A stretch of 64,000 nt of DNA from Amycolatopsis solani. Lineage in GTDB: Bacteria > Actinomycetota > Actinomycetes > Mycobacteriales > Pseudonocardiaceae. A program made the position numbers and the translations under genes. Positions 5,221 to 21,303 of the stretch are shown in pieces. The notes beneath the pieces are model-generated. The model made no database searches. It saw only the letters and a program-made list of their open reading frames with translations, and was not told the DNA's origin. The DNA lies in contig NZ_JAWQJT010000004.1 of NCBI RefSeq assembly GCF_033441515.1, positions 496,001 to 560,000 on the forward strand, read 5' to 3'. Each line of letters opens with the position of its first letter. The first letter of the stretch is position 1.

Positions 5221-6150
5221 ATGCGCGCCGACCGCCTCGTGGCCACCCTCCTGCTGATGCAGGCACGCGGCCGCGTCACCGCGCGCGAGCTGGCCGTCGA
5301 ACTGGAGATCTCGGTCGCCACCGCCCGCCGCGACCTCGAAGCCCTCTCGGCCGCCGGGGTTCCCGTCTACCCCCAGCCCGGCCGCGGCGGTGGCTGGCAG
5401 CTCGTCGGCGGCGCGCGCACCGACCTCTCGGGCTTGAGCGCCGGCGAAGCGCAGGCCCTGTTCCTCCTGGCCGGCCCGGCCGCGGCCGCCGCGCCGGAGG
5501 TCAAGTCGGCGCTGCGCAAGCTCATGGGCGCGCTGCCGGGCACGTTCCGCGCGGCCGCCGAGGCGGCGGCGGACGCGGTCGTCGTCGACCAGGCCGGCTG
5601 GGGCGAGCGGCCGAAGGACCGGCCGCCGATGGTCGGGCTGCTGCGGGACGCGGTCGTCGCCCGCCGCCGCGTCCGCCTGACCTACACCGGACGCGAGCGC
5701 CTCGTCGATCCGTGGGGCCTGGTCGACAAGAACGACGTCTGGTACCTGGTCGCGGGCACCGAGAAGGGCCGGCGCACGTTCCGCGTCGACCGGATCACCG
5801 CGGCCGCTCCCACCGCCGAGCCGGCCGACCGGCCGACGGACCTGGAGCTGGCGAAGGTGTGGGAGGAGGTCGTCGAAGAGGTCGAGAAGCGCCGTTCGCC
5901 GCTCACCGCGGACGTCCTGCTGGACCGGCGCCACCTCGGCGTCATGCGGGACCGGTTCGGGCGGCACTGCGAGCTCGTGGCCGAGCTGCCGGACGACCGC
6001 GTGCGGGTGCGGGTCGCCGCGCCCGCGCCGATCATGATCGCGCAGGAGCTGGCGGGGTGGGGCGCGCTCGTCGAAGTCGAAGGTCCGGCGTCGGTCCGGG
6101 CCGAGCTGGCCCGCCTCGGCGCCGAGCTGGTTGCCCGTTATGCCCGATAA
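5221..6150 (+). CDS. WYL-domain transcriptional regulator (DeoR-type HTH)
   Basis: A 309-residue regulator. The N-terminal winged helix occupies residues 1-60 (LLLMQARGRVTARELAVELEISVATARRDLEALSAAG, with the recognition helix in the last part). A WYL domain follows at about 135-200, with the signature WYLVAGTEKGRRTFRVDRI. A C-terminal WCX-like extension (REHL/HRELV type) is present to residue 309. WYL domains bind nucleic acids or small ligands and often tune transcription of the neighbouring gene. No Shine-Dalgarno sequence precedes the ATG (CACTTCCCCC), so translation may be leaderless. The divergent VOC gene and the dyad at 5178-5202 are the likely target. Confidence 0.9.
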   Translation: MRADRLVATLLLMQARGRVTARELAVELEISVATARRDLEALSAAGVPVYPQPGRGGGWQLVGGARTDLSGLSAGEAQALFLLAGPAAAAAPEVKSALRKLMGALPGTFRAAAEAAADAVVVDQAGWGERPKDRPPMVGLLRDAVVARRRVRLTYTGRERLVDPWGLVDKNDVWYLVAGTEKGRRTFRVDRITAAAPTAEPADRPTDLELAKVWEEVVEEVEKRRSPLTADVLLDRRHLGVMRDRFGRHCELVAELPDDRVRVRVAAPAPIMIAQELAGWGALVEVEGPASVRAELARLGAELVARYAR

Positions 6151-6263
6151 CTCCGGCCGGCCCCGGCCACGCGCGGTATCGGGCCTGCTCACGCCGCCAC
6201 CCACCGAAAACCACCCGGCTTGAACGCGGTTCGCCCGCTATGCTCGGTGAACGCCGTTAATCG

Positions 6264-6302
6264 GTCCATTATGGACACTAGGAAGACCTACTACGAGTGT
6301 CC
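6264..6302. promoter_or_regulatory. Overlapping dyads upstream of the SRPBCC-FadD gene
   Basis: A 264-nt gene-free stretch (6151-6414) precedes the fused acyl-CoA synthetase gene. It contains a perfect 13-bp palindrome, GTCCATTATGGAC (6264-6276). Overlapping it, GGACACT (6273-6279) pairs with AGTGTCC (6296-6302) across 16 bp. The AT-rich core in GC-rich surroundings suggests an operator or attenuator hairpin. Nothing else coding is supported in the gap. Confidence 0.4.
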
Positions 6303-6414
6303 GTTACTCACCGGTATCTGGCCGTTCGGAGTATCCGTGATCACCCGTTTGCTGTTACTGTGACGCCTCCGTGACCTGAACGTGTGTTCGGTGACACTGC
6401 GGCGAGGGCAGACG

Positions 6415-8481
6415 ATGCGTGACGATGTGGTCGAGGCGAGTGCGGTGGTCGGGCACACGCCGGACGTGGTGTGGCAGATCGTCGGATCTCCGGAGTGGTA
6501 TGCGCGGTTCGTGCCGGAGATCAGCTGGTGCGAGGTGCAGGAACCAGCCTCGCGCGGCCGGGGGCCGAAGGGGATGATCAGGATCGTCCCGGCGCGCGGG
6601 CCGATGCTGGAGGCGCAGGTGCAGGCCGTCGTGTACCGGCCGGGCGAGCACGTGGTGTGGTGCGGCGTCCCGGACGAGGGCACGTGGGTCTCCCTGGAGC
6701 TGAGACCGTTGGCGGGCGGCAAGACCGAGTTGTTCGTGCGGATGATGCTACCGCCGGCGTACCTCGATCTGGTCTCGTCGATCAAGAAGGACGTCCGCGT
6801 CCTGGCCCGGCGGCTCGACCTGCACCTGGCCGGCGAATACGACACCGAAGCCGATCGCGACGGCAACAAGGCGACCAAGCTGCGCACCACCAGCGTACTG
6901 CTGCGCGCCGGCGTGCTCAGCCCGGCCCGGCCGGACAAGCTGGCCCGCCAGCTCAACTCCCTCGCGCAGTGGGGCGCCACCGTCGCGGGTGGCTACCAGG
7001 CCGCCGCCGGGCGCGTCCCTGACCAGCCCGCGCTGCACGACGAGCGCAACACCCGCACCTTCCGCCAGGTCCAGGAGCGCAGCAACCGGCTCGCCAACGC
7101 GCTGAGCGAACTCGGCGTCGCCGAGCGCGACCGGATCGCGCTGATGTGCCGCAACCACTCCGCGATGGTCGAGTCGTTCGTCGCGGCCAGCAAGCTCGGC
7201 GCCGACGTCGTCCTGCTGAACACCGGCCTGTCCGCGGCTTCGGTCAAGGACGTGCTCGCCGAACACAAGCCGTCCGCCGTGCTCGCCGACGACGAATTCG
7301 CGCAGACCATCGCGAACGTCCCCGGCGACTTCGCGCGGATCAGCACGTGGCCGGACGCCGACGCCGGCTACCCGACCGTCGACGAGCTGATCCACGCCGC
7401 GCCCGCCGATCCGCCGAAGCCGGTCGAGCGGCCGGGCAGGCTGGTCGTGCTCACCTCCGGCACCACCGGGACGCCGAAGGGCGCCCGCCGTCCCACCCCG
7501 AAGGGGCTCGGCTCCGCCGCGGCGATCCTCGACCGCATCCCGCTGCGCGCCGGCGACCGGATCCTCGTCGCGGCGCCGCTGTTCCACAGCTGGGGCCTTG
7601 CCGCGATGCAGATCGGCATGGCGCTGCGGGCGTCGCTGGCGCTGATCCGCAAGTTCGACGCCGAAGAGACGCTGCGGACGATCGCCGAGCAGAAGTGCGA
7701 CGCGCTGTTCGTCGTGCCGATCATGCTGCAGCGGATCATGGACCTGCCCGAACGGGTCCGCGCGCGCTACGACCTGTCGTCGCTGCGGATCGTGGCGAGC
7801 AGCGGTTCGGCGATGTCCGGCGCGTTCGTGACGTCGTTCATGGACACCTTCGGCGACGTCCTCTACAACTTCTACGGCTCGACCGAGGTGTCCTGGGCGA
7901 GCATCGCCGACCCCGCCGACCTGCGCGCGGCCCCGACCACGGCCGGCCGCTGCCTGCTCGGCACCCGCCTGGCCATCCTGGACGAGGACCGCAAGCCGGT
8001 GCCGCCGGGCGGCGAGGGCCAGATCTTCGTCGGCAACGACATGCTCTTCGACGGCTACACCAACGGCACCGACCCGGCCCGCGCGGCGGACCTGATGGCC
8101 ACCGGCGACGTCGGCTTCCTCGACGCGGCGGGCCGGCTGTTCGTCACCGGCCGGGCCGACGAGATGATCGTTTCCGGCGGCGAGAACGTCTTCCCGCGCC
8201 CGGTCGAGGAAGCCCTGGTCGCGCTGCCCGGCGTGCACGACGCGGCGGTGGTCGGCGTGGCGGACGCGGAGTGGGGCCAGCGCCTGGCGGCGTACGTCGT
8301 GCCCCGGCGCGGTGCTTCGCTGCACGCCGAGGACATCCGCGCATACATCCACCAGCGGCTGGCCCGGTTCGCCGTGCCGCGGGACGTCTACTTCGTCCCG
8401 GACCTCCCCCGCAACGCGACGGGCAAGATCCTCAAGCGCCTCCTGCACGACGACACCTGGCCGGCGACCTCCGAGTACTGA
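6415..8481 (+). CDS. SRPBCC domain fused to FadD-type acyl-CoA synthetase
   Basis: A 688-residue two-domain protein. Residues ~1-140 form an SRPBCC/START-like fold (VVGHTPDVVWQIVGSPEWYARFVPEI at the start, a long C-terminal helix near 120-140), a hydrophobic-ligand pocket. After a short linker, residues ~160-688 are a class I adenylate-forming ligase. The AMP-binding loop LTSGTTGTPKGA is at ~345-357, YGSTE at ~486-490, TGDVG near 565 and the catalytic lysine region GKILKRLL at ~668. The ligase part resembles mycobacterial FadD2/FadD12, activating fatty acids to acyl-CoA. The ATG at 6415 has GAGGGCAGACG upstream; an earlier in-frame start has none. The fused START-like domain may deliver or sense the acyl substrate (inference). 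Confidence 0.85.
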   Translation: MRDDVVEASAVVGHTPDVVWQIVGSPEWYARFVPEISWCEVQEPASRGRGPKGMIRIVPARGPMLEAQVQAVVYRPGEHVVWCGVPDEGTWVSLELRPLAGGKTELFVRMMLPPAYLDLVSSIKKDVRVLARRLDLHLAGEYDTEADRDGNKATKLRTTSVLLRAGVLSPARPDKLARQLNSLAQWGATVAGGYQAAAGRVPDQPALHDERNTRTFRQVQERSNRLANALSELGVAERDRIALMCRNHSAMVESFVAASKLGADVVLLNTGLSAASVKDVLAEHKPSAVLADDEFAQTIANVPGDFARISTWPDADAGYPTVDELIHAAPADPPKPVERPGRLVVLTSGTTGTPKGARRPTPKGLGSAAAILDRIPLRAGDRILVAAPLFHSWGLAAMQIGMALRASLALIRKFDAEETLRTIAEQKCDALFVVPIMLQRIMDLPERVRARYDLSSLRIVASSGSAMSGAFVTSFMDTFGDVLYNFYGSTEVSWASIADPADLRAAPTTAGRCLLGTRLAILDEDRKPVPPGGEGQIFVGNDMLFDGYTNGTDPARAADLMATGDVGFLDAAGRLFVTGRADEMIVSGGENVFPRPVEEALVALPGVHDAAVVGVADAEWGQRLAAYVVPRRGASLHAEDIRAYIHQRLARFAVPRDVYFVPDLPRNATGKILKRLLHDDTWPATSEY

Positions 8482-8744
8482 TGCCCGAGCACACCCCCGA
8501 CGGCCGGTACATCGTCGTGAACGGCCGCCGCTGGCGCGCGACGGACCCGGAGATCCCGGCCGACGTCCGCGACCGGCTGCAGAAGCACCTGATGGCGGCC
8601 CGGCGCGTGCAGGACCGCGAACGCACCCAGCTCGCGAAGGTCGCGCTGGGCGAGCGCGGCGAACCGTGGTGGGAGCAGACTTCCGCGCAACGGCGGGAGC
8701 GCTGGGAACAGGGACTGGCGGCGCTGGATCAGCCGACCGGCTGA
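8481..8744 (+). CDS. Small conserved protein coupled to the acyl-CoA synthetase
   Basis: An 87-residue protein with no named catalytic motif. It starts with DGRYIVVNGRRWRATDPEIPADVRDRL, a sequence widespread in actinobacteria and sometimes labelled biopolymer transporter Tol without evidence. The rest is a charged amphipathic helix (HLMAARRVQDRERTQLAKVALGERG) ending WWEQTSAQRRERWEQG. The ATG overlaps the synthetase stop (TGATG), so it is translationally coupled. Its last 16 nt overlap the convergent GyrI-like gene. It is soluble with no signal peptide. Function unknown. Confidence 0.75.
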   Translation: MPEHTPDGRYIVVNGRRWRATDPEIPADVRDRLQKHLMAARRVQDRERTQLAKVALGERGEPWWEQTSAQRRERWEQGLAALDQPTG

Positions 8745-9328
8745 CGCAGCACGGTCTTGAGCTTCTCAGGCACCGTCCGGCGTGGGTCGCCGAGGTAGAC
8801 CTCGTGGTGCAGCCCGGTCGGCGCCAATCCGTGCCGCTCGAGGAATTCGCCGTGCAAGCGGGCCAGCAACGGGCCTTCGTCGTCGTACGAGCCGACGTGC
8901 AGGGCCTGCGCGCAGCGACCCTCGTGCAGCTTCTCCAGCCGGACCGGCGCGTCGATCTTCTTCTTGCGCCGCACCGCTTCCCGGGCTTCCTCGACGGCGT
9001 CCTCGCCGATCCACGGCGGTTGCGCGATGAGCATCGTCCACTGCCAGGTGTCCTTGGCCCGCACGGTGAAGGCGGCGTAGTCGTCGGCCCACCACAGGCC
9101 TTCCAGCGGGCCGACGACGAAGTCCTCGCCGGTGCGCTTGGCCGTCATCTTGATCGTGTACGCGAAGGCGTAGAGCGCTTCGACGGCCTTTCGGTACGCC
9201 TCGGCCGTGTTCGGGTTGCCGCGGCCGTCGATCGCGAGGAACTGCTGCTCGGGCACGTCGAGCAGGGCCCAGTCGGTGTTCTTGGGCGCGTAGAGCTGGT
9301 TCAGCTCTTTCTTGAGGTCGTACGGCAT
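8729..9328 (-). CDS. GyrI-like small-molecule-binding protein
   Basis: A 199-residue cytoplasmic protein of the GyrI-like/SOUL-type effector-binding fold. The start LKKELNQLYAPKNTDWALLDVPEQQFLAIDGRGNP and the central KMTAKRTGEDFVVGPLEGLWW match the GyrI-like domain found alone or fused to AraC/MerR regulators. The tail HEGRCAQALHVGSYDDEGPLLARLHGE is the second repeat of the fold. Stand-alone members are thought to bind xenobiotics; some hydrolyse cyclopropanoid toxins. Its ATG overlaps the stop of the upstream padR gene by 1 nt, so the pair is one operon and probably responds to the same compound. The ligand is unknown. Confidence 0.85.
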   Translation of the reverse strand: MPYDLKKELNQLYAPKNTDWALLDVPEQQFLAIDGRGNPNTAEAYRKAVEALYAFAYTIKMTAKRTGEDFVVGPLEGLWWADDYAAFTVRAKDTWQWTMLIAQPPWIGEDAVEEAREAVRRKKKIDAPVRLEKLHEGRCAQALHVGSYDDEGPLLARLHGEFLERHGLAPTGLHHEVYLGDPRRTVPEKLKTVLRQPVG

Positions 9329-9837
9329 CAGGACATCCCCTCCAGCCACGCGGCTTCGGCTTCGAGCTGCGCGATCGAATAGTCGAAGATCGCGCGGACG
9401 AACGGCGGCACGTCCGGCTGGGCCGCGGCGGCGCGCCGGACTTCGGCCAGCTTCTCCGCGACCGCCTCGGCTCGCCGGGCCAGCGCCGCGGCGACCCGGT
9501 CCGGCGCCACCACCGGGCTGTTCGCCAGTCCGACGAGCAGCGGCGGGTGCACCGGGCGCAGTTCGGCGATGGCGGCTTCCGCGGCGGCCGCGCACGCCCG
9601 CCGTCCCGCTTCCGTCGCCGTGTACGTCTTCTTCGCCTTGGCGTGCGCGCGTTCCTGCTCGACTTCGGCGACCAGGCCGCGGTCGCGGAGTTTGCCGAGC
9701 ACGTAGTAGATCGAGCTGAACCCGAGCGCCGTCCACTCGCGCATGCCGCGTTCGGAGACGACTTCGTCGAGCTCGTAGCCGTGCCTCGGCCGCTCGACCA
9801 CCAGGCCGAGCACCGTCAGTTCCGCGTCGGTGAGCAC
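9328..9837 (-). CDS. PadR-family transcriptional regulator
   Basis: A 169-residue PadR regulator with an N-terminal winged helix (TVLGLVVERPRHGYELDEVVSERGMREWTALGFSSIYYVLGKLRDRGLV). The wing continues into KKTYTATEAGRRA. A helical C-terminal domain (residues ~90-169) serves dimerisation, as in the longer PadR-s1/VirR group. The start is a GTG with no Shine-Dalgarno sequence; a -10-like TAGAAT ends 6 nt before it, so the mRNA is probably leaderless. It is cotranscribed with the GyrI-like protein and probably represses its own promoter. Confidence 0.88.
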   Translation of the reverse strand: MLTDAELTVLGLVVERPRHGYELDEVVSERGMREWTALGFSSIYYVLGKLRDRGLVAEVEQERAHAKAKKTYTATEAGRRACAAAAEAAIAELRPVHPPLLVGLANSPVVAPDRVAAALARRAEAVAEKLAEVRRAAAAQPDVPPFVRAIFDYSIAQLEAEAAWLEGMS

Positions 9838-9842
9838 CGGCC

Positions 9843-9874
9843 TATTCTAGTACTGTAATACACCCACTCGTCAA
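9843..9874 (-). promoter_or_regulatory. padR promoter with overlapping operator dyad
   Basis: Read on the minus strand, TTGACG (9874-9869) and TAGAAT (9849-9844) are separated by 19 nt, and the GTG of padR follows 6 nt later. The -10 box lies within an 18-bp dyad, TATT-N2-AGTACT-N2-AATA (9843-9860). This is a good candidate for an autoregulatory PadR operator on a leaderless promoter. Confidence 0.55.
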
Positions 9875-9939
9875 CGGTTCCGGAAATTGTCGGTGGGGGC
9901 TGGCATGCTTCAGCGAGTACCGGAAAGCGAGGGAGCACA

Positions 9940-11259
9940 GTGGGGGGACAGGTGGTGACGGCGGTGCCGTGGACCGCGGAGCGCGTGGCCGGGCTGGCGC
10001 CGGATCCCGCGTCGGAGAAGGCGGGCCGGGCGCTCGCCGCGCCGGCGAAGTGGTCCGGCGCGGGCGCGTCCGAAGACGCCGTGTGGGGCTTCTGCCAGGG
10101 CAGTGGCAAGAAGCCGTACCAGACGTGCGTCGAGCTCGCCGAGCCCGCGTTCCGGTGTTCCTGTCCCAGCCGGAAGTTCCCGTGCAAGCACGCACTGGGG
10201 CTGCTGATGCTGTGGGCGGCCGGGAAGATCGACGCGGGACCGGCGCCGGAGTGGGTGCACACGTGGCTCGCCGAGCGAGCCGATCGCGCCCGGCGGGCGG
10301 AAAAACGCGCGGAAGCGACCGGCCCGAAGGACGAAGAAGCGGCCGCCCGCCGTGCGGGCGAACGCGCGGCGCGCGTCGAAGGCGGCGTCGCCGAGCTGAA
10401 GGTCTGGCTGACCGACCGGATCGGCGCCGGCTTCGCGGGCTTCGACCGCAACGGCGGCGAAGAACTGCGCACGGTCGCGGCCCGGATGGTCGACGCACAG
10501 GCGTCCGGCCTCGCGGGCGGCTTGAGGCGGGCGGCCGGGACCGTCGGCCGCCGCGACTGGCCGGAAGCGTTGCTCTCGGAGCTTTCGCTGCTGTACCTGC
10601 TGGCGGACGCGGCAGGCCGGCTGGACGAGCTGCCGCCGCCGCTGGCGGAGACGGTCCGGACCAGGCTCGGCTTCTCGGTGGAGACGGCCCGCGTCATGGA
10701 GACCGGCGAGCGCGTCTCGGACGACTGGCTGATCACCGGCGCGGCCGACGAGGAGAACGACCGGCTGCTGACTCGCCGGACGTGGCTGCGCGGCCGCGGC
10801 ACGGGCCGTGACGCGCTGGTGTTGTCGTTCGCCCCGCCGGGCCGCCCCCTGGACGCGTCCCTGCCACCCGGGCACCTGCTCACGGCGGAACTGGCGTTCT
10901 ACCCGGGCGCGGCCCCGTTGCGGGCACTGGTGGTGGAGCGCGGCATCCCGCTCGCGGCCCCGTCCGCCGAGGGCGGCTCCATCCCGGAGGCGCTGGCGGC
11001 GTACGCGGAGGCCATGGCCGCCGACCCGTGGCTGGAACGCTGGCCGATCCTGCTCTCGGCAGTCACCCCAGCCGAACACGCGGGCGGCTGGTGTCTGTCC
11101 GAAAAGGACGGAACAGCACTACCGCTGGTGCCGTACGCGTTCCCGTGGCCCCTGCTGGCGATGTCGGCGGGCCGCCCCCTGACGGTGGCGGGCGAGTGGA
11201 GCCCAGCCGGCTTCCGCCCCTTGACGTGCTGGCACGAAAACCGGGCGGTGCGCCTGTGA
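9940..11259 (+). CDS. SWIM zinc-finger protein of the MoxR/VWA cluster
   Basis: A 439-residue protein with one recognisable domain, a SWIM zinc finger at residues 73-84: C73-x-C75-x6-C82-x-H84, followed by the helix ALGLLMLWAAGK. SWIM fingers bind DNA or protein. The N-terminus (WTAERVAGLAPDPASEKAGRALAAPAKW) is conserved in this family. An alanine/arginine-rich charged stretch (~110-150) and a long helical C-terminal region have no named domain. The GTG at 9940 has GAGGGAG 4 nt upstream. It is the first of five same-strand genes and corresponds to the SWIM-bearing gene (yehQ-like) found with YehL-type MoxR ATPases. It probably acts as an adaptor or substrate receptor (inference). Confidence 0.85.
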   Translation: MGGQVVTAVPWTAERVAGLAPDPASEKAGRALAAPAKWSGAGASEDAVWGFCQGSGKKPYQTCVELAEPAFRCSCPSRKFPCKHALGLLMLWAAGKIDAGPAPEWVHTWLAERADRARRAEKRAEATGPKDEEAAARRAGERAARVEGGVAELKVWLTDRIGAGFAGFDRNGGEELRTVAARMVDAQASGLAGGLRRAAGTVGRRDWPEALLSELSLLYLLADAAGRLDELPPPLAETVRTRLGFSVETARVMETGERVSDDWLITGAADEENDRLLTRRTWLRGRGTGRDALVLSFAPPGRPLDASLPPGHLLTAELAFYPGAAPLRALVVERGIPLAAPSAEGGSIPEALAAYAEAMAADPWLERWPILLSAVTPAEHAGGWCLSEKDGTALPLVPYAFPWPLLAMSAGRPLTVAGEWSPAGFRPLTCWHENRAVRL

Positions 11260-11299
11260 ACCTTGCCCTGAAAGAACTTCGAGCACCGGAGGTGCACCC

Positions 11300-12691
11300 G
11301 TGAAGGCCTGGGAAGACCTCGTCGGCACCGCCCTCCTCGGCACCCGCCGCCGCACCCTCGACCTCGCCCACCTCCCGCCCGCCGTCCGGCCGCTCGCCGA
11401 AGACCGCGCCGACCCCGCCGAGCAGCTCCTCGCCGCCGCGGCGGTGCTCACCACCTTCCGGCGGGCCGGGCGGCAGGCGCTGCACGACGTGCGGCCACTG
11501 CCCGTTGCCACAGAGGACGAGCGCGCCTTCGTACCGCCGCTCGCCCGGGAACGGCTAGCCCGGCTGCTCGCCGCCAGTCATCCCGATCTGCTGCTCGAGT
11601 GGCTCGGCATCGTCGCCGGCACCCGCTACCGCGTCCCGCCCGAGACCCTTCCCCTACTCGCCGAAGCCGCGCGGACGAAAGCCGCCCTGCGCGGGCCGCT
11701 CGTCGCGGTCGCCGGGCCCGTCGGGGCCTGGCTCGGGCAGCGGAACCCGGACTGGTCCTTCCTCGGCGCCCCCGCGGAATCCGGTGGTTCGCCGGACATC
11801 TGGCAGTACGGCAGCCTCGCCCAGCGGCGCCGCTGGCTGGCCGCCAAGCTGGCCGAAGCACCCGATGAAGCCCGCGAAGCCCTCACGACGTCCTGGAAGT
11901 CCGAACCGGCCGACGTCCGCTCGGACTTCCTCAGCGTGCTCGCCCCGCACGTGCGGCCCGAGGACGAGGCCTTCCTCGAAGCCGCGCTGACCGACCGGGC
12001 GGCCGCCGTCCGGGAACGGGCCGCCGAGCTGCTCGGGCGGCTGCCCGGCACCCGGTACGGCGAAAGCATGGCCGAACGGCTGCGCCCGCTGGTCCGCAGC
12101 CGCAACCGGGTCCTGGAAATCGTGCTGCCGCAAGGCGAACGCGGTGACGGCACCGTCCGGCTGCGCACCCTCGTCGCGGCCGCTCCCCTGGCCTTCTGGA
12201 CCGAGTTCGGGCCGCCCGCCGAGGTGGTGCGGATGACCGTCGAGGGGTGCCCGGCCGCCGTGCTGCGCGACTCCTGGGCCACCGCCGCTGTCCGCCAAGG
12301 CGACGAGACCTGGGCGAAGGCGCTGATCGGCGCCGATCCCGGCGGGCGCACCACCCCGCCGCTGCTCGGCGTGCTGAGCCCGGCGAGCCAGGCCGCCACG
12401 ATCGGGCACCTGGTGAGCCGGCTGCCCGTCGAATCGTTCGCGCGGCTGGTGCACGAACTGCCCCGGCCGTGGACCAAGGAGCTCGGCACGGCCCTGCTCG
12501 ACTGGATCGCCCGCCAGGACGACCACCGCCTGGTTTCGCACGCCGCCGTCGTGATCGCCCGCGCGGTCCCGCCGCAGTGCCTGCGCCACCCGCTGGCCAC
12601 CACCCGCCTGACCATGGACGCCGGGCCGTGGCGCCGGGCGCTCACCGAAACGCTGAACTTCCGCCGCGAAATGTACGAGGAGCTCGCATGA
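11300..12691 (+). CDS. DUF5691 protein of the MoxR/VWA cluster
   Basis: A 463-residue soluble protein matching, from memory, the DUF5691 family. The N-terminus WEDLVGTALLGTRRRTLDL is characteristic, as is HPDLLLEWLGIVAGTRYRVP. The middle (VRSDFLSVLAPHVRPEDEAFLEAALTDRAAAVRERAAELLGRL) reads like short helical repeats of HEAT type, suggesting a protein-binding scaffold. No catalytic motif is seen. The GTG start has GGAGGTG 5 nt upstream. The stop overlaps the next gene's ATG (ATGA), so it is translationally coupled to the AAA ATPase. Its constant linkage to SWIM, AAA, DUF5682 and VWA genes argues for a role in that complex; the biochemical role is unknown. Confidence 0.8.
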   Translation: MKAWEDLVGTALLGTRRRTLDLAHLPPAVRPLAEDRADPAEQLLAAAAVLTTFRRAGRQALHDVRPLPVATEDERAFVPPLARERLARLLAASHPDLLLEWLGIVAGTRYRVPPETLPLLAEAARTKAALRGPLVAVAGPVGAWLGQRNPDWSFLGAPAESGGSPDIWQYGSLAQRRRWLAAKLAEAPDEAREALTTSWKSEPADVRSDFLSVLAPHVRPEDEAFLEAALTDRAAAVRERAAELLGRLPGTRYGESMAERLRPLVRSRNRVLEIVLPQGERGDGTVRLRTLVAAAPLAFWTEFGPPAEVVRMTVEGCPAAVLRDSWATAAVRQGDETWAKALIGADPGGRTTPPLLGVLSPASQAATIGHLVSRLPVESFARLVHELPRPWTKELGTALLDWIARQDDHRLVSHAAVVIARAVPPQCLRHPLATTRLTMDAGPWRRALTETLNFRREMYEELA

Positions 12692-13776
12692 CCGCCCCCG
12701 CCACCGTCCTCCGGCCGCACGCCGAACAGGACCACGCCGCCGAGCTGGCCGCGCTGGCCGCCGCCGACGACCGGGCGAAGCCGCCGAACTGGCACCTGTC
12801 CCCCTGGGCCGTCGTCGAATACCTGCTCGGCGGCACCCTGCCGGACGGCACCGTGCTCACGCCGAAGTACGTCGGCCCCCGCCGGCTGATCGAGGTCGCC
12901 GTCGCCACGCTGGCCACCGACCGCGCGCTGCTGCTGCTCGGCGTGCCGGGCACGGCGAAGACGTGGGTGTCCGAGCACCTCTCGGCCGCGATCAGCGGCG
13001 ACTCGACGCTGCTGGTGCAGGGCACCGCGGGCACGTCCGAGGAGTCGATCCGCTACGGCTGGAACTACGCCCGCCTGATCGCCGAGGGCCCGAGCCCCGC
13101 CGCGCTCGTCGAGAGCCCGCTGCTGCACGCGATGCGCGACGGGAAGCTGGCCCGGCTGGAGGAGCTGACCCGCATCCCGGCCGACGTCCAGGACTCGCTG
13201 ATCACGATCCTGTCCGAGAAGACACTGCCGATCCCGGAGCTGGGCACCGAGGTGCAGGCGCGGCCGGGCTTCAACCTGATCGCGACGGCCAACAACCGCG
13301 ACAAGGGCGTCAACGAGCTGTCGAGCGCGCTGCGGCGGCGGTTCAACACGGTCGTGCTGCCGCTGCCGGACAGCGCCGACGCGGAGGTCGAGATCGTCAG
13401 CAGGCGGGTCGCCGAGCTGGGCAAGTCGCTGCAGCTGCCCACCGAGGCCGCCGAGCTCGCCGAGATCCGCCGGGTGGTCACGGTGTTCCGCGAGCTGCGC
13501 TCGGGCCGCACCGAAGACGGCCGCACGGCGGTGAAGTCGCCGTCCGGCACGCTCTCCACCGCGGAGGCGATCAGCGTGCTCACCGGCGGGCTCGCACTGG
13601 CGGCGCACTTCGGCGACGGCGTGCTGCGCCCGCACGACGTCGCGGCCGGCATCCACGGCGCCGTGGTCAAGGACCCGGTCGCCGACCGCGCGATCTGGAT
13701 CGAATACCTGGAGACGGTGGTCCGCGAGCGCGACGGCTGGGCCGACTTCTACCGGGCCGGCCAGGAGATTTCGTGA
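12688..13776 (+). CDS. MoxR-type AAA+ ATPase (YehL-like)
   Basis: A 362-residue AAA+ ATPase. Walker A is GVPGTAKT at residues 85-92. The acidic Walker B region is RLEELTRIP at ~156-164, with a Glu-Glu pair rather than Asp-Glu. Sensor 1 lies in IATANNRDKG (~198-207), and the arginine finger region in SSALRRRFNTV. The MoxR signature pre-sensor segment PIPELGTEVQARPGF is present. MoxR ATPases act as hexameric chaperones that work with VWA proteins to insert cofactors or remodel complexes. The start is the ATG in ATGA overlapping DUF5691; the far longer upstream frame is an antiphase artefact. The next gene overlaps by GTGA. The length and sequence fit the YehL branch better than canonical MoxR. 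Confidence 0.9.
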   Translation: MTAPATVLRPHAEQDHAAELAALAAADDRAKPPNWHLSPWAVVEYLLGGTLPDGTVLTPKYVGPRRLIEVAVATLATDRALLLLGVPGTAKTWVSEHLSAAISGDSTLLVQGTAGTSEESIRYGWNYARLIAEGPSPAALVESPLLHAMRDGKLARLEELTRIPADVQDSLITILSEKTLPIPELGTEVQARPGFNLIATANNRDKGVNELSSALRRRFNTVVLPLPDSADAEVEIVSRRVAELGKSLQLPTEAAELAEIRRVVTVFRELRSGRTEDGRTAVKSPSGTLSTAEAISVLTGGLALAAHFGDGVLRPHDVAAGIHGAVVKDPVADRAIWIEYLETVVRERDGWADFYRAGQEIS

Positions 13777-15956
13777 CGGCGACCCACCTGCTCGGCATCC
13801 GCCACCACGGCCCGGGATCCGCCAGGGCCGTGGCGGCGCGGCTCGCCGAACTCGAGCCCGACGTCGTGCTGATCGAGGGCCCGCCCGAAGCCGACGTCCT
13901 GGTCGAGCTGACCGAAGACCCGGCGATGGCGCCGCCGGTCGCGCTGCTGGCCTACGCGACCGACGACGTCTCGCGGGCCGCGTTCTGGCCGTTCGCCGTC
14001 TTCAGCCCGGAATGGCAGGCGCTCACCTACGCCCGCGAAGCCGGGATCCCGGTGCGGTTCTGCGACCTGCCGGCCGCGAACACGTTCGCCGCGGGTCCCG
14101 ACGAGCTCGCCGGCCCACCGGTCGACCCGCTGGCGCTGCTGGCTTCGGCGGGCGGCTACGACGACCCGGAACGCTGGTGGGACGACGTCGTCGAGTCCCG
14201 GCGGGACAGCGAAAACCCGTTCGACGTGATCGCCGACGCGATGACCGCGGTGCGCGAAGACGAAGAACCCCCGCAGGGCAGCGAAGCCCGGCGTGAGGCG
14301 TACATGCGCTCGGTGCTGCGCCGCACCCGCAAGGACGGCTTCGAAAACATTGCGGTCGTCTGCGGGGCCTGGCACGTACCCGCGCTGGCCGACCCGCTGC
14401 CGCCGGCGTCGCACGACCAGGCCGTCCTCAAAGGACTCCCGAAGCGCAAGGTCGCGTGCACCTGGGTGCCGTGGACGCACGGCAGGCTGGCCACCGCCAG
14501 CGGGTACGGCGCCGGGGTGCGGTCGCCGGGCTGGTACCACCACCTGTTCACGACGGCCGAAGACGTCACCGCGCGCTGGCTGACCGGCGTCGCCGGGGTG
14601 CTGCGGGAAGAGGACCTGCCCGTCTCGACCGCGCACGTCATCGAAGCCGTCCGGCTGGCCGAAGCGCTGGCGACGCTGCGCGGGCGGTCGTCGGCCGGGC
14701 TCGCCGAGGTCACCGAAGCCACCCGGTCCGTGCTGTGCGGTGGCGACGAGGTGCAGGTCGAGCTGGTCACCCGGCGGCTGGTGGTCGGCGAACGGCTCGG
14801 CGAGGTCCCCGACCGGGTGCCGCAGCCGCCGCTGGCCGCGGACCTGACCGCGACGGCGAAACGCCTGCGGCTCAAGAAGGATCCGGTCGTCAAGGAGCTC
14901 GACCTCGACCTGCGCACACCCGGCGGGCTCGACCGCTCGAAGCTGCTGCACCGGCTGCGGATCCTCGGCATCGAGTGGGGCAGCCGGGAGGCGTCGGCGC
15001 GGCGGAACAAGGGCACGTTCCGGGAAACCTGGGCGCTGGCCTGGGAACCGTCGTTCGAGGTCGACCTGGTCGCGGCGGCGGTCTACGGCACGACCGTGCC
15101 CTCGGCGGCCACGGCCGCGGTGCGCGGCACCGTCGAGGGCACGCCACCGCTGGACGAGGTCACCACGGCCGTCGAGAACTGCTTGCTCGCCGACCTGCCG
15201 GAGGCGCTGCCCGAAGCGCTCGCGGCGCTCGACGCCCGTGCGGCGGCCGACGCGGACGTCGCGCGGCTGATGTCGGCGCTGCCGGCGCTGGCCAGGGCGA
15301 CCCGCTACGGGAACGTGCGCGGCACCGACACCGGTGCCCTGCGGGCGGTCGCCGACCGCATGCTCGACCGGATCTGCGCCGGGCTGCCCCCGGCCGCCCA
15401 CGGCATCGACGACGACGCCGCGGCCCGGCTGGCCGCGCTGGTCGACGGCGTGCACGACGCCACCTCGCTGCTGGATGACGCCGCCAAGGAACGCTGGCTG
15501 GCGGCGCTGGCCCGGCTCGCGGAACGCCCGTCGCTGCCGCCGCTGCTGGCCGGGCGGCTCACCCGGATCCTGCACGACAGCGGCCTCCTCGACGCGCTCG
15601 ACATCGAGCTGCGGCTCGGCCGGGCGCTGACGCCGGGCATCACGCCGTCGGCGGGAGCGGCGTACGTCGAGGGCTTCTTCGACGGCGGCGCGCTGCTGCT
15701 GGTGCACGACGAAGGCCTGCTGCGGGTGATCGACGCCTGGCTCGCGGGGATCCCGCCGGAGGTCTTCACCGAGGTGCTTCCGTTGCTGCGCCGGACGTTC
15801 GGCGCGTTCAGCGGGCCCGAGAAACGGGCGATCGGGCACCGGGCGGCCGGCCTGACCGGCCCCGCCCGGCTCGCCCCGGTGGCCGACGAACTGGACGAGG
15901 ACCGGGCGGAGCGCGTGCTGCCCGTCCTGGCCACACTGCTGGGGGTGGGGGCATGA
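13773..15956 (+). CDS. DUF5682 protein with TIKI/TraB-like GxxH motifs
   Basis: A 727-residue soluble protein of the DUF5682 family (E. coli YehM-like in length and context). The N-terminal ~240 residues form an alpha/beta domain with GIRH at 8-11, IEGPPE at ~34-39 and GAWH at 198-201. Two GxxH motifs plus a glutamate after a hydrophobic strand are the pattern described for the TIKI/TraB/GumN/EreA-ChaN hydrolase superfamily, so a metal-dependent hydrolase site is plausible (inference). The remaining ~480 residues are helical and alanine/leucine-rich, perhaps a platform for the ATPase. GTGA and ATGA overlaps join it to the AAA and VWA genes. Substrate unknown. Confidence 0.82.
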   Translation: MTATHLLGIRHHGPGSARAVAARLAELEPDVVLIEGPPEADVLVELTEDPAMAPPVALLAYATDDVSRAAFWPFAVFSPEWQALTYAREAGIPVRFCDLPAANTFAAGPDELAGPPVDPLALLASAGGYDDPERWWDDVVESRRDSENPFDVIADAMTAVREDEEPPQGSEARREAYMRSVLRRTRKDGFENIAVVCGAWHVPALADPLPPASHDQAVLKGLPKRKVACTWVPWTHGRLATASGYGAGVRSPGWYHHLFTTAEDVTARWLTGVAGVLREEDLPVSTAHVIEAVRLAEALATLRGRSSAGLAEVTEATRSVLCGGDEVQVELVTRRLVVGERLGEVPDRVPQPPLAADLTATAKRLRLKKDPVVKELDLDLRTPGGLDRSKLLHRLRILGIEWGSREASARRNKGTFRETWALAWEPSFEVDLVAAAVYGTTVPSAATAAVRGTVEGTPPLDEVTTAVENCLLADLPEALPEALAALDARAAADADVARLMSALPALARATRYGNVRGTDTGALRAVADRMLDRICAGLPPAAHGIDDDAAARLAALVDGVHDATSLLDDAAKERWLAALARLAERPSLPPLLAGRLTRILHDSGLLDALDIELRLGRALTPGITPSAGAAYVEGFFDGGALLLVHDEGLLRVIDAWLAGIPPEVFTEVLPLLRRTFGAFSGPEKRAIGHRAAGLTGPARLAPVADELDEDRAERVLPVLATLLGVGA

Positions 15957-17125
15957 CCGCGGAGACCGACGACCGGCTGCGGCGCTGGCGGCTGGTGCTG
16001 GGCGGCGACGGCGCCGGGCCCGGCTCGGGGCTGGCCGACACGGAACTGTCCGATGAGGACAGTGGGGTCGACCAGGTGCTGGCCGCGCTCTACGACAAGC
16101 CGGACGAGGAGGCCGCGGGTGGCCCGCGCGGGGCGAACCTGGGTGCGTCGGCGCCCCGGGTCGCGCGCTGGCTGGGTGACATCCGCCGCTACTTCCCCAG
16201 CACGGTGGTGCAGGTGATGCAGCGCGACGCCGTCGACCGGCTCGGGCTGACCCGGATGCTGCTGGAGAAGGAGCTGCTGTCGGCGGTCGAACCCGACGTG
16301 CACCTGGTCGGCACGCTGCTCTCGCTCAACGGCGTGCTGCCCGAGGAGACGAAGGAGACCGCGCGGGAGGTCGTCCGCAAGGTGGTCCACGAGCTGGAGG
16401 AGCGCCTCGCCGAGCGCACCCGCGCCGCGATCAAGGGCGCGCTGGACAAGGCGTCGCGCACCCACCGGCCCCGCCCGGGCGACGTCGACTGGGCGCGCAC
16501 GATCCACGCGAACCTCAAGCACTACTCCCCCGAGCTGCGCACGATCGTGCCGGAGCGCCTGATCGGCTTCGGGCGGCGGCAGCAGGCGGTGCAGCGGGAC
16601 GTGATCCTGGCCGTCGACCAGTCGGGCTCGATGGCGGAGTCGGTCGTCTACTCCGGGCTGTTCGGCGCGGTGCTGGCCTCGATGCGGGCGCTGCGGACGT
16701 CGTTCGTCGCGTTCGACACGGAGGTGGCGGACCTGACCGAGCACCTGACCGACCCGGTCGACGTCCTGTTCGGCACCCAGCTGGGCGGCGGCACCGACAT
16801 CAACCGGGCGATCGCCTACTGCGAGGGCCTGGTCGAGCGCCCGGAGCGCACGCTGCTGGTGCTGATCAGCGACCTGTACGAGGGCGGTGACGCCGACGAG
16901 CTGCTGCACCGCGTCGGCGAGCTGGTGGGCGCGGGGGTCCAGGTGGTCACGCTGCTGGCGCTGTCCGATTCGGGTGCGCCTTCCTACGACCACGAGAACG
17001 CGGCGGCGCTGGCCGAGCTGGGCGTCCCGGCGTTCGCGTGCACCCCGGACCAGTTCCCCGAGCTGATGGCCGCCGCCATCCGCGGCGACGACCTGCAGGG
17101 ATGGGTGGCTCGCGAGACCAGCTGA
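15953..17125 (+). CDS. VWA-domain protein (MoxR partner, YehP-like)
   Basis: A 390-residue protein whose C-terminal ~190 residues are a von Willebrand factor A domain with a complete metal-ion-dependent adhesion site. DQSGS is at residues 222-226 (DxSxS), GGGTDIN near 279-285 supplies the threonine, and [10 protein letters not shown] near 303-312 supplies the aspartate. The N-terminal half ([13 protein letters not shown], later [22 protein letters not shown]) is helical and conserved in this family. VWA proteins are the usual partners of MoxR ATPases, presenting substrates through the metal site. No signal peptide or membrane helix is present, so the complex is cytoplasmic. It is the last gene of the five-gene operon, ATGA-overlapped with DUF5682. 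Confidence 0.9.
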
Positions 17126-17165
17126 GTCGCGGAATCAAACCGAATGGCGTGATGTTGAGGAGGGT

Positions 17166-17181
17166 GTGGGACGGTTCCCAC
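17166..17181. promoter_or_regulatory. Short perfect inverted repeat before rpmJ
   Basis: GTGGGA (17166-17171) and TCCCAC (17176-17181) flank a CGGT loop, 17 nt before the L36 ATG and beyond the VWA stop. It could be a weak terminator for the MoxR operon or a regulatory hairpin in the rpmJ leader. No canonical AT-rich Zur box was found here. Confidence 0.4.
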
Positions 17182-17198
17182 GGGAAGGACGGTCCACC

Positions 17199-17321
17199 AT
17201 GAAGGTCCGCAGCTCGATCCGCTCGCTGGCCCGCCAGCAGGGCGCGCAGGTCATCCGCCGCGGCAACCGGGTGTTCGTGATCAACAAGGACAACCCGCGC
17301 TCGAAGGCGCGTCAGGGCTGA
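17199..17321 (+). CDS. rpmJ: 50S ribosomal protein L36, cysteine-free (C-) paralogue
   Basis: A 40-residue ribosomal protein L36: [14 protein letters not shown], then [17 protein letters not shown] and a terminal ARQG. The usual zinc ligands (three cysteines and a histidine) are all absent, replaced by Ala, Gln and Asn/Lys. This is therefore the zinc-independent form, like E. coli YkgO or Streptomyces RpmJ2, which replaces the zinc-bearing L36 when zinc is scarce. It stands alone rather than in the S13/S11 operon, as expected for the second copy. AAGGA lies upstream of the ATG. Its 3' end overlaps the convergent monooxygenase gene by 10 nt. Zur control is typical for such paralogues but no Zur box is evident. 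Confidence 0.92.
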
Positions 17322-18787
17322 ACCGCGCTCGCCGGCGTGCGGGACCCGAACCGCAGCACGCCGTCGTCGAGCCGGGTGAAGCGCATGTCCGCCAGATCCA
17401 GCAGGTAGTTCTGGCGCATCATCCAGGGCCGCTTCCCGCCCTGCTTCGGCAGGCCGGAAGCGGCCCTTTTGATGTACCCGGACTGCAGGTCCACGATTGG
17501 CCGCGGCTCACCGGCCGACTCCGCCGACGCCGGGTCGGGCACGCAGAACGCGTACCCGTGGCGATCCAGGTGCGCCAGCAGCCGGCAGACGTACTGGGAC
17601 GCCAGATCCGCCCGCAGCGTCCACGAGTTGTTCGTGTAGCCCACGCACCACGCCAGGTTCGGGACGCCGCCGAACATCATGCCCTTGTACGCCCGCTGCT
17701 CCCCCGGCTCGATCGCGCGGCCGTCGACGTCGAGTGAAATCCCGCCGAAGGCCACCAGGCGAAGGCCGGTCGCCGTGACGATGATGTCCGCCGGCACCGT
17801 ACGTCCCGAAGCCAGTTCCACTCCGGTTTCGGTGAAGCGCGAGATCCCGTCCGTCACGATGTCGGCCTTGCCCGACCGCAGCGCCTTGAACAGGTCCGCG
17901 TCCGGGACCAGGCACAGGCGCTGGTCCCACGGGTCGTACGACGGCACGAAGTGCGGGTCCACCGGGATCGACGCCGGCAGCTGCGCCGCCACGCGGTCGC
18001 GCAGCGCCCGCGCGGCCCGGCCCGGGAGGCGGCGCATCAGCTGGAAGAACAGCGTTCCCATGACCACGTTCTTGCCGCGGACCACCCGGTGCGCGAGCTT
18101 CTCCGGCAGCAGCGCGCGGATCCGGTCGGCGAGCGCGTCGCGGCCCGGGCGCGCCACGATGTACGACGGCGAGCGCTGCAGCATCGTCACGCTCGAAGCG
18201 CGAGAGGCCATCGCCGGGACGAGCGTCACCGCCGTCGCGCCGCTGCCGATCACGACGACCCGCTTGTCCGTGTAGTCCAGCGACGAAGGCCAGTGCTGCG
18301 GGTGGACGATCTCGCCCGCGAAGTCCGCGCGGCCCGGGAAGTCGACGACGTGCCCGGACTCGTAGGAGTAGTAACCACTGCACAGGTACAGGAACCGGCA
18401 CGTGAACGTCGCGCCGTGTGCCGTCGAGACCGTCCACCGCGCCGACGAAGACGACCACGACGCCCGCACCACCCGGTGCCCGAAGCGGATCCGGTCGACG
18501 ATCCCGTGCGCGGCCGCCGTCTCGCGGATGTACGCGAGGATCGACGGCCCGTCCGCGATCGCCTGGGGGTCCTTCCACGGGCGGAACGGGTAGCCGAGGG
18601 TGAACATGTCCGAATCCGACCGGATGCCGGGGTAGCGGAACAGGTCCCAGGTGCCGCCGATGGTGTCGCGCGCTTCGAGCACCGCGTACGTCTTGCCCGG
18701 CAGCCGTTCCTGGAGCCGGCAGGCCGCGCCGATGCCGGACAGCCCGGCCCCCACGATCAGGACGTCGACGTGTTCGGCACCGGTCAT
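17312..18787 (-). CDS. Flavin-containing (Baeyer-Villiger-type) monooxygenase
   Basis: A 491-residue FAD/NADPH monooxygenase. The FAD Rossmann motif [10 protein letters not shown] is at residues ~13-22, with GGTW near 46. The Baeyer-Villiger fingerprint [12 protein letters not shown] (FxGxxxHxxxWP) lies at ~150-161, and the NADPH motif GSGATA near 173. TGL at ~335 and the long C-terminal part fit the EtaA/EthA-like branch of the family. Such enzymes oxygenate ketones or sulfur compounds such as thioamides. The ATG at 18787 gives a normal N-terminus; the upstream extension is arginine-rich and unlikely. It is convergent with rpmJ and 22 nt downstream of the lyase gene. The natural substrate is unknown. 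Confidence 0.88.
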
Positions 18788-18809
18788 GGTTCGCAGCGTA
18801 ACCGGGGCC

Positions 18810-21164: not shown

Positions 21165-21243
21165 GACGACGACTCCCAGGATCAAGACAGCCTTGGCTTG
21201 CGGGGAAGGGGATTCAGTTGTGCGGCGGCGTGGTGGAGCATCA

Positions 21244-21300
21244 CCCCGCACTTTCACGTGAAAGTGCGGGGCCCAGGTTGGCACTTTCACGTGAAAGTGC
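21244..21300. repeat. Two copies of a CACGTG-centred 20-bp palindrome
   Basis: GCACTTTCACGTGAAAGTGC occurs at 21248-21267 and again at 21281-21300, separated by 13 nt. The first copy extends by four C:G pairs to a perfect 28-bp palindrome (21244-21271). The pair fills the gap between the lyase and aldehyde dehydrogenase genes (both minus strand). Two further copies lie inside scpB (62033-62085), so this is a dispersed repeat. It may fold as a hairpin or serve as a protein-binding site. Confidence 0.85.
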
Positions 21301-21303
21301 GAG

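What the first reader, a model, noticed from the sequence alone, without database searches (positions are those of the whole stretch)
9940..17125. Five-gene MoxR/VWA/SWIM system with two DUF partners
Seen: SWIM protein, DUF5691, AAA ATPase with GVPGTAKT, DUF5682 and VWA with an intact DxSxS site. The last four are chained by ATGA/GTGA overlaps. Known: MoxR ATPases pair with VWA proteins as chaperones, and E. coli yehL/M/P/Q is a similar, largely uncharacterised set. Inference: the five proteins form one ATP-driven complex in which SWIM or DUF5691 recruits a target, VWA presents it and DUF5682 acts on it. Such a machine could serve complex maturation, stress or defence.
Basis: partly seen in the sequence, partly recalled or inferred. 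Interest (0 to 1): 0.75.

Follow-up and report, generated by a model that had tools for sequence, protein, structure and literature searches.

The report
MoxR–VWA machine carrying TraB-like enzyme
Five adjacent bacterial genes encode what looks like an ATP-driven protein machine whose central subunit carries an unrecognised enzyme-like domain of the TraB/Tiki kind, and the same machine sits, unstudied, in nearly every E. coli.

Summary
SWIM, DUF5691, YehL-type MoxR AAA+, DUF5682 and VWA lie at 9940-17125 of an Amycolatopsis-type chromosome; 4-nt overlaps join the last four genes. The set is a real unit. In 296 genomes of the phylum, DUF5682, this VWA and this AAA+ occur in 21, 21 (the same) and 20 (a subset); all 18 genomes with above-cutoff DUF5691 are among them. 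Single frames join SWIM to DUF5691 (16 loci; three lack the zinc motif) and DUF5682 to VWA (4 loci). E. coli yehLMPQ is the same module, with DUF4132 instead of DUF5691; yehM is in 5284 of 5426 E. coli genomes. New here: the first ~240 residues of DUF5682 resemble the TraB/Tiki fold. The top viral-library match is a TraB protein (E 1.4e-6), profile alignment beats 100 shuffles, and six of seven TraB-invariant residues have counterparts identical in all 113 sequences with a residue there. PDB, Pfam and hhalign probability alone are weak. Best reading: a MoxR-VWA motor gating a TraB/Tiki-type hydrolase, with a zinc/helical-repeat adaptor. Catalysis, interfaces and substrate are untested. Defence is unlikely but, given patchiness across the phylum, not excluded.

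The parts
9940..11259 (+). SWIM zinc-finger protein, 439 aa; homologous to E. coli YehQ beyond the zinc motif
   Evidence: Pfam SWIM 3.2e-5; profile-profile with YehQ group 222 columns, prob 99, E 4.4e-18
10156..10191 (+). SWIM motif C73-x-C75-x6-C82-x-H84
   Evidence: 85 of 94 aligned rows keep all four, the other 9 rows are gaps there
11300..12691 (+). DUF5691 protein, 463 aa, possibly HEAT-like helical repeat
   Evidence: Pfam DUF5691 1.2e-105; only sub-threshold HEAT_2 0.027 and HEAT_EZ 0.049; no structure was predicted
12688..13776 (+). MoxR-type AAA+ ATPase, YehL orthologue
   Evidence: AAA_5 9e-38; blastp to YehL 2.7e-77, 41% over 359 aa
12940..12963 (+). Walker A GVPGTAKT
   Evidence: K91 in 108 of 109 rows, 1 gap
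13147..13167 (+). Walker B region LARLEEL, Glu-Glu instead of the usual Asp-Glu (usual form recalled)
   Evidence: E158 and E159 in 108 of 109 rows, 1 gap
13773..15956 (+). DUF5682 protein, 727 aa, YehM orthologue
   Evidence: Pfam 1.2e-271; blastp to YehM 6.9e-41; AF2 model pLDDT 88.7
13773..14492 (+). TraB/Tiki-like alpha/beta domain, residues about 1-240
   Evidence: AF2 of residues 1-260, pLDDT 87.9 pTM 0.86; Foldseek BFVD top hit TraB family protein E 1.4e-6; hhalign to TraB
13794..13808 (+). motif 1, G8-I-R-H11-H12 (TraB GxxH)
   Evidence: H11 113 of 118 rows, 5 gaps; G8 108, P 5, 5 gaps
14364..14375 (+). last motif, G198-A-W-H201 (second TraB GxxH)
   Evidence: G198 and H201 113 of 118 rows, 5 gaps
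14493..15953 (+). largely helical C-terminal part of DUF5682
   Evidence: secondary structure of AF2 model
15953..17125 (+). VWA (CoxE-like) protein, 390 aa, YehP orthologue
   Evidence: VWA_CoxE 1.6e-54; blastp to YehP 5.4e-75
16616..16630 (+). MIDAS DxSxS, D222-Q-S-G-S226
   Evidence: D222, S224, S226 in 107 of 108 rows, 1 gap

Best explanation
The five genes encode one ATP-driven machine. Shown here by sequence: AAA+, DUF5682 and VWA form a core that travels together; DUF5682 is sometimes fused to VWA and SWIM to DUF5691, so the likely sub-assemblies are [AAA+ ring + DUF5682-VWA] and [SWIM-DUF5691]. Supported by fold and motifs: the first ~240 residues of DUF5682 are a TraB/Tiki-like domain with a strictly conserved set of His, Glu, Asp and Arg residues at the positions that are invariant in TraB. 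Inferred: the AAA+ hexamer pulls or twists the VWA-DUF5682 unit through the MIDAS-bearing VWA domain, as NorQ does to NorD. Each ATP cycle opens or loads the TraB/Tiki-like site, so DUF5682 hydrolyses (or binds and transfers) its substrate only when the motor engages. The SWIM zinc finger with its partner (DUF5691, or DUF4132 in the E. coli type) selects the client. The role is cellular housekeeping: protein-complex remodelling, regulated cleavage or quality control.
For: Co-occurrence in the same 296 genomes (window genome included): PF18934 in 21, VWA E<=1e-20 in the same 21, AAA E<=1e-40 in 20, all inside the 21, DUF5691 over cut-off in 18, all inside; hypergeometric 1e-32, 4e-30, 5e-26 (genomes are not independent). 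Numbers of DUF5682, AAA and VWA matches agree in 19 of the 21 genomes; in G050 and G259 the extra DUF5682 match is a fragment. Linkage in 102 loci. Three cyanobacterial genomes in which DUF5682 lies away from one or both partners still carry AAA (70-71% identity) and VWA (59-63%). Fusions: 16 SWIM-DUF5691 and 4 DUF5682-VWA. TraB/Tiki fold: BFVD top hit TraB family protein E 1.4e-6, prob 1.00, the only BFVD hit below 0.001; ChaN and BcR135 at PDB ranks 4, 5, 7 and 20, E 0.15-0.9, both named as members of this fold in PMC6254334 and PMC7979712 (passages); hhalign score 31.6 against 100 column shuffles (mean 12.0, sd 2.1, max 21.6), reversed and unrelated profiles 11.5-18.1. TraB invariants G38 H41 E67 E159 R228 G249 H252 correspond to G8 H11 E35 D98 R174 G198 H201 of DUF5682; all but G8 (108 of 113) are identical in every row with a residue. 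H..E..R..H is also the order of H50, E78, R261, H289 in EreC (PMC7979712 passages); this equivalence is by order, not superposition. Motor motifs intact.
Against: No activity, interface or substrate shown. No TraB match in Pfam above threshold (1 of 43 N-domains, E 0.18). hhalign probability is only 28.8% in the best run and 9.4% on the stock alignments (P 0.0034). No PDB hit reaches E 0.001, and the three best (Tetrahymena complex IV chains, E 0.0018-0.039) could not be tied to the TraB family by me. TM-scores of the BFVD TraB hit are 0.39/0.46 with rmsd 12.8. ChaN of the same fold binds haem (PMC7979712 passages), so the fold does not prove hydrolysis. D98 stands where TraB has Glu, and that pairing was made by eye: hhalign placed a gap there. 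The extra Glu beside the first His in EreC and RRSP is absent. Walker B is EE, so ATPase activity must be measured. The module is absent from most genomes of the phylum (275 of 296), so it is not universal housekeeping.
Confidence: 0.5

Rival explanations
1. Cofactor or metal insertase: the module works like NorQD or CoxDE, and DUF5682 is a haem- or metal-binding scaffold (as ChaN in the same fold) that loads a client enzyme; no hydrolysis.
For: Well-characterised MoxR-VWA pairs insert metals (NorQD abstract; CoxD-CoxE and Mg-chelatase listed in PMC7159879 passages). The VWA protein is of the CoxE family. ChaN is among the PDB hits. A paper notes DUF4132 as possibly linked to molybdopterin biosynthesis and MolR (PMC8533742 passage).
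Against: No cofactor enzyme was seen conserved beside the module: among flanking frames the largest shared cluster covered 14 of 102 loci, the clusters I read were MFS, ABC and a kinase-like frame, and the rest looked like lineage synteny (listing capped at 60 clusters). The conserved residues match TraB/Ere sites. The same paper saw no change in D. radiodurans moeA or moeB in that experiment.
Confidence: 0.27
2. Conflict or defence system like the MoxR-vWA ternary systems (VMAP, iSTAND, FtsH, beta-propeller) described in eLife 2020.
For: Same MoxR-vWA engine plus third component (PMC7159879 passages); weak bpMoxR match of the AAA protein, below cut-off; DUF5691 matches a PADLOC HEAT-ARM model over 94 residues at 2.7e-5; only 21 of 296 genomes of the phylum have it; some plasmid copies lie near restriction-modification genes, transposases or a toxin-antitoxin pair.
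Against: No PADLOC match to AAA better than 0.005 and none to DUF5682, VWA or SWIM; yehM in 5284 of 5426 E. coli genomes, 5289 of 5291 places chromosomal, and DUF5682 in 146 of 150 genomes of one actinobacterial genus, four of them by weak matches only, unlike a patchy defence gene; the window's neighbours do not read like defence genes (translations, not searched); a single-sequence scan of viral contigs found none.
Confidence: 0.1
3. Protein chaperone only: the TraB-like domain is a dead or structural fold and the module remodels a client complex like RavA-ViaA.
For: RavA-ViaA precedent (PMC3893208 passages); the large helical part; fold match without demonstrated catalysis.
Against: Eleven of 21 examined N-domain positions (chosen because they were conserved in the first alignments) are identical in all 113 sequences with a residue there, from Actinobacteria to E. 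coli and Fusobacterium, more than a scaffold usually needs.
Confidence: 0.13

Closest known systems
E. coli yehLMPQ (YehL subfamily of MoxR)
   Same: YehL, YehM, YehP are orthologues of the AAA, DUF5682 and VWA proteins (blastp 2.7e-77, 6.9e-41, 5.4e-75); YehM is Pfam DUF5682; YehQ is homologous to the SWIM protein by profile.
   Different: No DUF5691 in the E. coli control genome; DUF4132 (YehI) lies upstream instead and is not detectably related to DUF5691; SWIM gene is last, not first.
NorQ-NorD / CoxD-CoxE (MoxR-VWA insertases)
   Same: MoxR AAA+ with a VWA partner; NorQ is the best non-midasin PDB match of the AAA; the window VWA is Pfam VWA_CoxE.
   Different: They lack DUF5682, SWIM and DUF5691, and their target genes lie beside them (both recalled); no client gene is conserved here.
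TraB/PrgY/GumN and Tiki/Ere/ChaN superfamily
   Same: Fold match (weaker in 99) and corresponding GxxH...E...(E/D)...R...GxxH residues.
   Different: Not reached by Pfam TraB at threshold; here the domain is tied to a MoxR-VWA motor and carries a ~480-residue helical part.
MoxR-vWA ternary conflict systems (PMC7159879)
   Same: MoxR + vWA + a conserved third protein.
   Different: Third protein is DUF5682, not VMAP, iSTAND, FtsH or a propeller; the paper holds no SWIM mention; near-core in E. coli and one actinobacterial genus.

Membership tests
YehL-type MoxR/VWA module (yehLMPQ) | Orthologous AAA+, DUF5682 and VWA | tested here: met
YehL-type MoxR/VWA module (yehLMPQ) | SWIM protein homologous to YehQ | tested here: met
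   no significant blastp similarity but hhalign prob 99, E 4.4e-18 over 222 columns
YehL-type MoxR/VWA module (yehLMPQ) | DUF4132 (YehI-type) protein | tested here: not met
   DUF5691 stands there instead; no YehI match in window 5001-22000, the stretch examined
TraB/Tiki superfamily (DUF5682 N-domain) | Common alpha/beta fold | tested here: met
   Foldseek BFVD TraB E 1.4e-6, prob 1.00, TM 0.39/0.46; PDB hits ChaN and BcR135 only at E 0.15-0.9
TraB/Tiki superfamily (DUF5682 N-domain) | GxxH, Glu, Arg, GxxH in order, invariant | tested here: met
   alignment; first Gly is Pro in 5 of 113
TraB/Tiki superfamily (DUF5682 N-domain) | Sequence match to Pfam TraB above cut-off | tested here: not met
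   1 of 43 N-domains, E 0.18
TraB/Tiki superfamily (DUF5682 N-domain) | Hydrolase activity | not testable with these tools
   needs enzymology
MoxR-VWA pair | AAA+ of the MoxR clade with VWA carrying an intact MIDAS | tested here: met
MoxR-VWA pair | Physical AAA-VWA complex | not tested
Known anti-phage defence system | Match to a defence-system profile | tested here: not met
   only weak partial matches, best HEAT-ARM_XIII 2.7e-5 for DUF5691
Known anti-phage defence system | Patchy distribution | tested here: inconclusive
   near-core in E. coli and one genus, but 21 of 296 genomes across the phylum

The most novel reading that the evidence does not exclude
The module is an ATP-gated TraB/Tiki-type protease: a kind of energy-dependent proteolytic machine in which a MoxR ring and a VWA co-chaperone, rather than a ClpX/FtsH-type unfoldase, switch on a Tiki-family active site, with SWIM plus a swappable partner protein choosing clients. 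It would be near-core in E. coli and in a large actinobacterial genus and yet unrecognised.
Probability: 0.3. Interest if true: 0.88.

Novelty: new variant of a known kind. Interest (0 to 1): 0.64.

Why it matters
YehL is one of two MoxR proteins of E. coli K-12 and names one of seven MoxR subfamilies (PMC3893208 passages), yet I found no functional study in the library searched: no held paper contains DUF5682 or DUF5691, and two hold at least two of yehL/M/P/Q, both genome papers by their listing. Assigning DUF5682/YehM to the TraB/Tiki fold gives the orphan module a candidate active site. It names residues (H11, E35, R174, H201 of the window protein; by my count on the translation, H11 and E35 fall at the same positions in YehM) whose loss can be tested in an ordinary laboratory strain.

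Tried and rejected
Whole-protein Foldseek of DUF5682 against the PDB was uninformative (helical-repeat hits, none E<=0.001); cutting to the N-domain helped. PDB sequence searches with P0002, with the N-domain profile A3, with the VWA protein and with TraB gave nothing usable. I could not confirm that the top PDB hits of the N-domain (7w5z_E, 8b6h_DQ, 8bqs_DQ) are the TraB-family subunit that a figure legend of PMC10060162 mentions for the Tetrahymena complex (passage), so I do not count them.

TraB-family and ChaN-family members were nearly absent in the actinobacterial sample (1 of 119; 0 of 119), so the TraB profile was built from YbaP and loci of other phyla.

A sixth conserved gene was sought and not found. 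rpmJ-like and PadR-like neighbours turned up in only two other loci, both close Amycolatopsis (pattern search, blastp). DUF5691 as a relative of DUF4132 was tested and rejected. The 4-nt overlaps recur in relatives (SWIM-DUF5691 40 of 71, DUF5691-AAA 59 of 78, AAA-DUF5682 40 of 98, DUF5682-VWA 56 of 95 same-strand pairs), but no chance baseline was run, so I give them little weight. A single-sequence scan of viral contigs found no relative of P0002. Plasmids: 36 of 72,556 records match P0002. On rechecking I raised defence from 0.07 to 0.10 because the report now states the phylum-level patchiness and plasmid contexts.
Full report
WHAT IS THERE. The five genes are as described. The window lies in a 10.28-Mb, four-contig genome whose nearest named relatives by DUF5682 are Amycolatopsis (95% identity). 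Downstream comes a short rpmJ-like frame (17199-17321), upstream a divergent PadR-like gene (9328-9837), both named by reading the translation.

IT IS A UNIT. I asked for four of the five families in the same draw of 296 genomes of the phylum, window genome included. DUF5682: 21 genomes. VWA at E<=1e-20: the same 21. AAA at E<=1e-40: 20, all among the 21; the missing one, G259, has its DUF5682 51 bases from a contig end. DUF5691 over its cut-off: 18, all among the 21; three sub-threshold matches lie in genomes without DUF5682. Hypergeometric values are; genomes share ancestry, so they are not probabilities of independent events. SWIM was not surveyed genome-wide. The numbers of DUF5682, AAA and VWA matches agree in 19 of 21 genomes; in G050 and G259 the extra DUF5682 match is a fragment.

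GENE ORDER. 74 have the window order on one strand. 11 have SWIM and DUF5691 divergent from AAA-DUF5682-VWA; the six named ones are Streptomyces (5) and Streptantibioticus (1). AAA and VWA were each found in 98 of 102. Of the misses, L039, L117 and L090 are contig edges. L107, L112 and L127 are cyanobacterial loci whose genomes hold strong AAA and VWA genes; L127 has AAA beside DUF5682 and VWA on another contig, and L112 starts 287 bases before DUF5682, so a contig end limits what it shows. The reach is wide: Actinobacteria, Cyanobacteria, Bacteroidota, Planctomycetes, Chloroflexota, Trueperaceae and Thiofilum by the titles (group names partly recalled), plus Deinococcus, Rhizobium and Fusobacterium records.

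VARIANTS. (i) Window type, with DUF5691. (ii) E. coli type: DUF4132 (YehI-like) instead of DUF5691, SWIM (YehQ-like) after VWA: E. coli, L050 and plasmid-collection records L141, L142, L143, L144, L150; L047 also carries YehI, AAA, DUF5682, VWA and a SWIM-type motif. L128 (Niastella) has both DUF5691 and a YehI-like gene. (iii) DUF5682 and VWA in one frame: L046, L048, L049 (with a SWIM-type motif after VWA by pattern) and L151; L151 also has DUF4132, AAA and a SWIM match below cut-off. (iv) A divergent set, AAA, VWA and a DUF5682 relative matching Pfam positions 4-503 of 727, without a SWIM motif by pattern (L051). In the variants that I could see whole, AAA, VWA and the N-terminal part of DUF5682 are what is shared.

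FUSIONS. In 13 the SWIM match starts at the beginning of the profile; in L038, L072 and L093 it starts at profile position 89-123, so the zinc motif is not in that frame and these three are weaker. Four have DUF5682 and VWA in one frame; the L151 one is annotated as a single 1257-aa protein.

THE DUF5682 N-DOMAIN. The AF2 model of the full protein (43-sequence alignment, pLDDT 88.7) has an alpha/beta N-terminal domain and a mostly helical remainder. Residues 1-260 folded alone give pLDDT 87.9, pTM 0.86. Foldseek against BFVD: rank 1 is a viral 'TraB family protein', E 1.4e-6, prob 1.00, TM 0.39/0.46, rmsd 12.8, the only hit below 0.001. Against the PDB no hit is below 0.001; ranks 1-3 are Tetrahymena complex IV chains that I could not identify further, while ChaN (2g5g) and BcR135 (2rad, 3b55) take ranks 4, 5, 7 and 20 at E 0.15-0.9, among unrelated folds. 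PMC6254334 and PMC7979712 list ChaN and BcR135 as members of one fold with the Tiki/Ere enzymes (passages). hhalign of 52 DUF5682 N-domains against YbaP plus 15 relatives: score 33.0, P 6e-4, probability 28.8%, with the confident stretch at the last motif only. The low-stringency full-length alignment runs colinearly 1-243 to 18-269. Trimmed score 31.6 against 100 column shuffles with mean 12.0, sd 2.1 and maximum 21.6; two reversed and four unrelated profiles 11.5-18.1. The stock tool on fewer sequences gives score 27.8, P 0.0034, probability 9.4%. TraB-invariant G38, H41, E67, E159, R228, G249, H252 (14 sequences) correspond to DUF5682 G8, H11, E35, D98, R174, G198, H201; H11, E35, D98, R174, G198 and H201 are identical in all 113 rows with a residue there (of 118; 5 gaps), G8 in 108. 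The D98-E159 pairing is by eye. In EreC the residues H50, E78, R261 and H289 act together (PMC7979712 passages): the same order, with similar spacing within each pair. I conclude a TraB/Tiki-like domain (about 0.85), with hydrolysis a further inference because ChaN of this fold binds haem.

MOTOR AND ADAPTOR. Of 109 AAA rows (1 gap), Walker A Lys91, Asn202 and Arg218 are in 108 and Arg217 in 107, and Walker B is Glu-Glu in 108; MIDAS D, S, S in 107 of 108 VWA rows (1 gap); SWIM C, C, C, H in 85 of 94 (9 gaps). The SWIM protein and YehQ are homologous over 222 columns. DUF5691 shows only sub-threshold HEAT similarity.

MECHANISM. By analogy with NorQD, where a finger of the VWA protein enters the AAA+ pore and ATP work twists a linker in NorD (abstract), I propose that the MoxR ring acts on the VWA-DUF5682 unit to open or load the TraB/Tiki-like site, with SWIM-DUF5691 delivering clients. 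Shown: co-occurrence, linkage, single-frame fusions, conserved residues, fold match. Inferred: ring-VWA contact, gating, hydrolysis, client delivery.

WHY PROBABLY NOT DEFENCE. PADLOC gave weak partial matches only: HEAT-ARM_XIII 2.7e-5 for DUF5691, 0.005-0.013 for the AAA, none for the other three. yehM is in 5284 of 5426 E. coli genomes, in 5166 over at least 80% of the gene, median one copy, 5289 of 5291 places chromosomal. DUF5682 is in 146 of 150 genomes of the genus of G023, four of these only by weak matches (G023's genus shares the Streptomyces arrangement, the name is inference), and in 72 of 80 of the window's genus, 51 of them full-length. Against this, the phylum as a whole is patchy (21 of 296) and some copies lie on plasmids (36 of 72,556 records).

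WHAT IS IN PRINT. No held paper contains DUF5682, DUF5691, or MoxR with 'SWIM zinc finger'. Two contain at least two of yehL, yehM, yehP, yehQ (listing only). Three contain DUF4132 (passages of two seen). A search for pairs among TIKI, TraB, MoxR, yehM and GumN listed 12 of 17 papers, no listed one holding yehM. The 2020 survey of MoxR-vWA ternary systems describes four types and holds no 'SWIM' (passages). Subscription papers, among them the Tiki superfamily paper, could not be checked, so earlier notice of a YehM-Tiki link is possible.

Noticed in passing
own genus survey: Of 80 genomes of the window's genus, 51 carry full-length DUF5682 (E 5e-266 or better) and 21 carry only a divergent copy matching in its N-terminal part (E 4e-18 to 1e-31); no genome listed has both (chance 4e-13, ignoring ancestry; at most 11 candidates per genome were scored). 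Clade split or functional replacement.
   Followed up: partly
12688-13776, residues 158-159: Walker B carries Glu-Glu in 108 of 109 aligned AAA rows (1 gap) instead of the usual Asp-Glu (recalled); a possible signature of this MoxR subfamily.
   Followed up: partly
L107, L112, L127: In three cyanobacterial genomes DUF5682 lies apart from one or both of AAA and VWA, but both genes are present in the genome.
   Followed up: yes
L147:5941-7854: In a Fusobacterium record a 637-aa protein not matched by my DUF5691 profile stands between SWIM and AAA.
   Followed up: no
L151:2735-7654: A 1639-aa protein without Pfam match at 0.01 lies between DUF4132 and the AAA gene on a Streptomyces plasmid.
   Followed up: no
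L146:11157-12382: On the Methylosinus trichosporium plasmid the VWA gene matches in three separate frames and is probably broken, while the other four genes are annotated.
   Followed up: no
L148: An unverified 14-kb 'Bacteriophage sp.' record from faeces carries AAA-DUF5682-VWA; probably a bacterial contig.
   Followed up: no
17199-17321: A short rpmJ (L36)-like frame without cysteines (zinc-independent type, recalled) follows the VWA gene; a pattern search found it beside the module only in L052 and L053.
   Followed up: partly
9328-9837 (-): PadR-like regulator (named by reading its translation) divergent from the SWIM gene, 86-88% identical in L052 and L053 only among the loci searched.
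   Followed up: partly
PMC8533742, passage: A D. radiodurans operon with a DUF4132 protein rises strongly when the repressor DdrO is depleted; whether it belongs to a yeh-type module was not tested.
   Followed up: no
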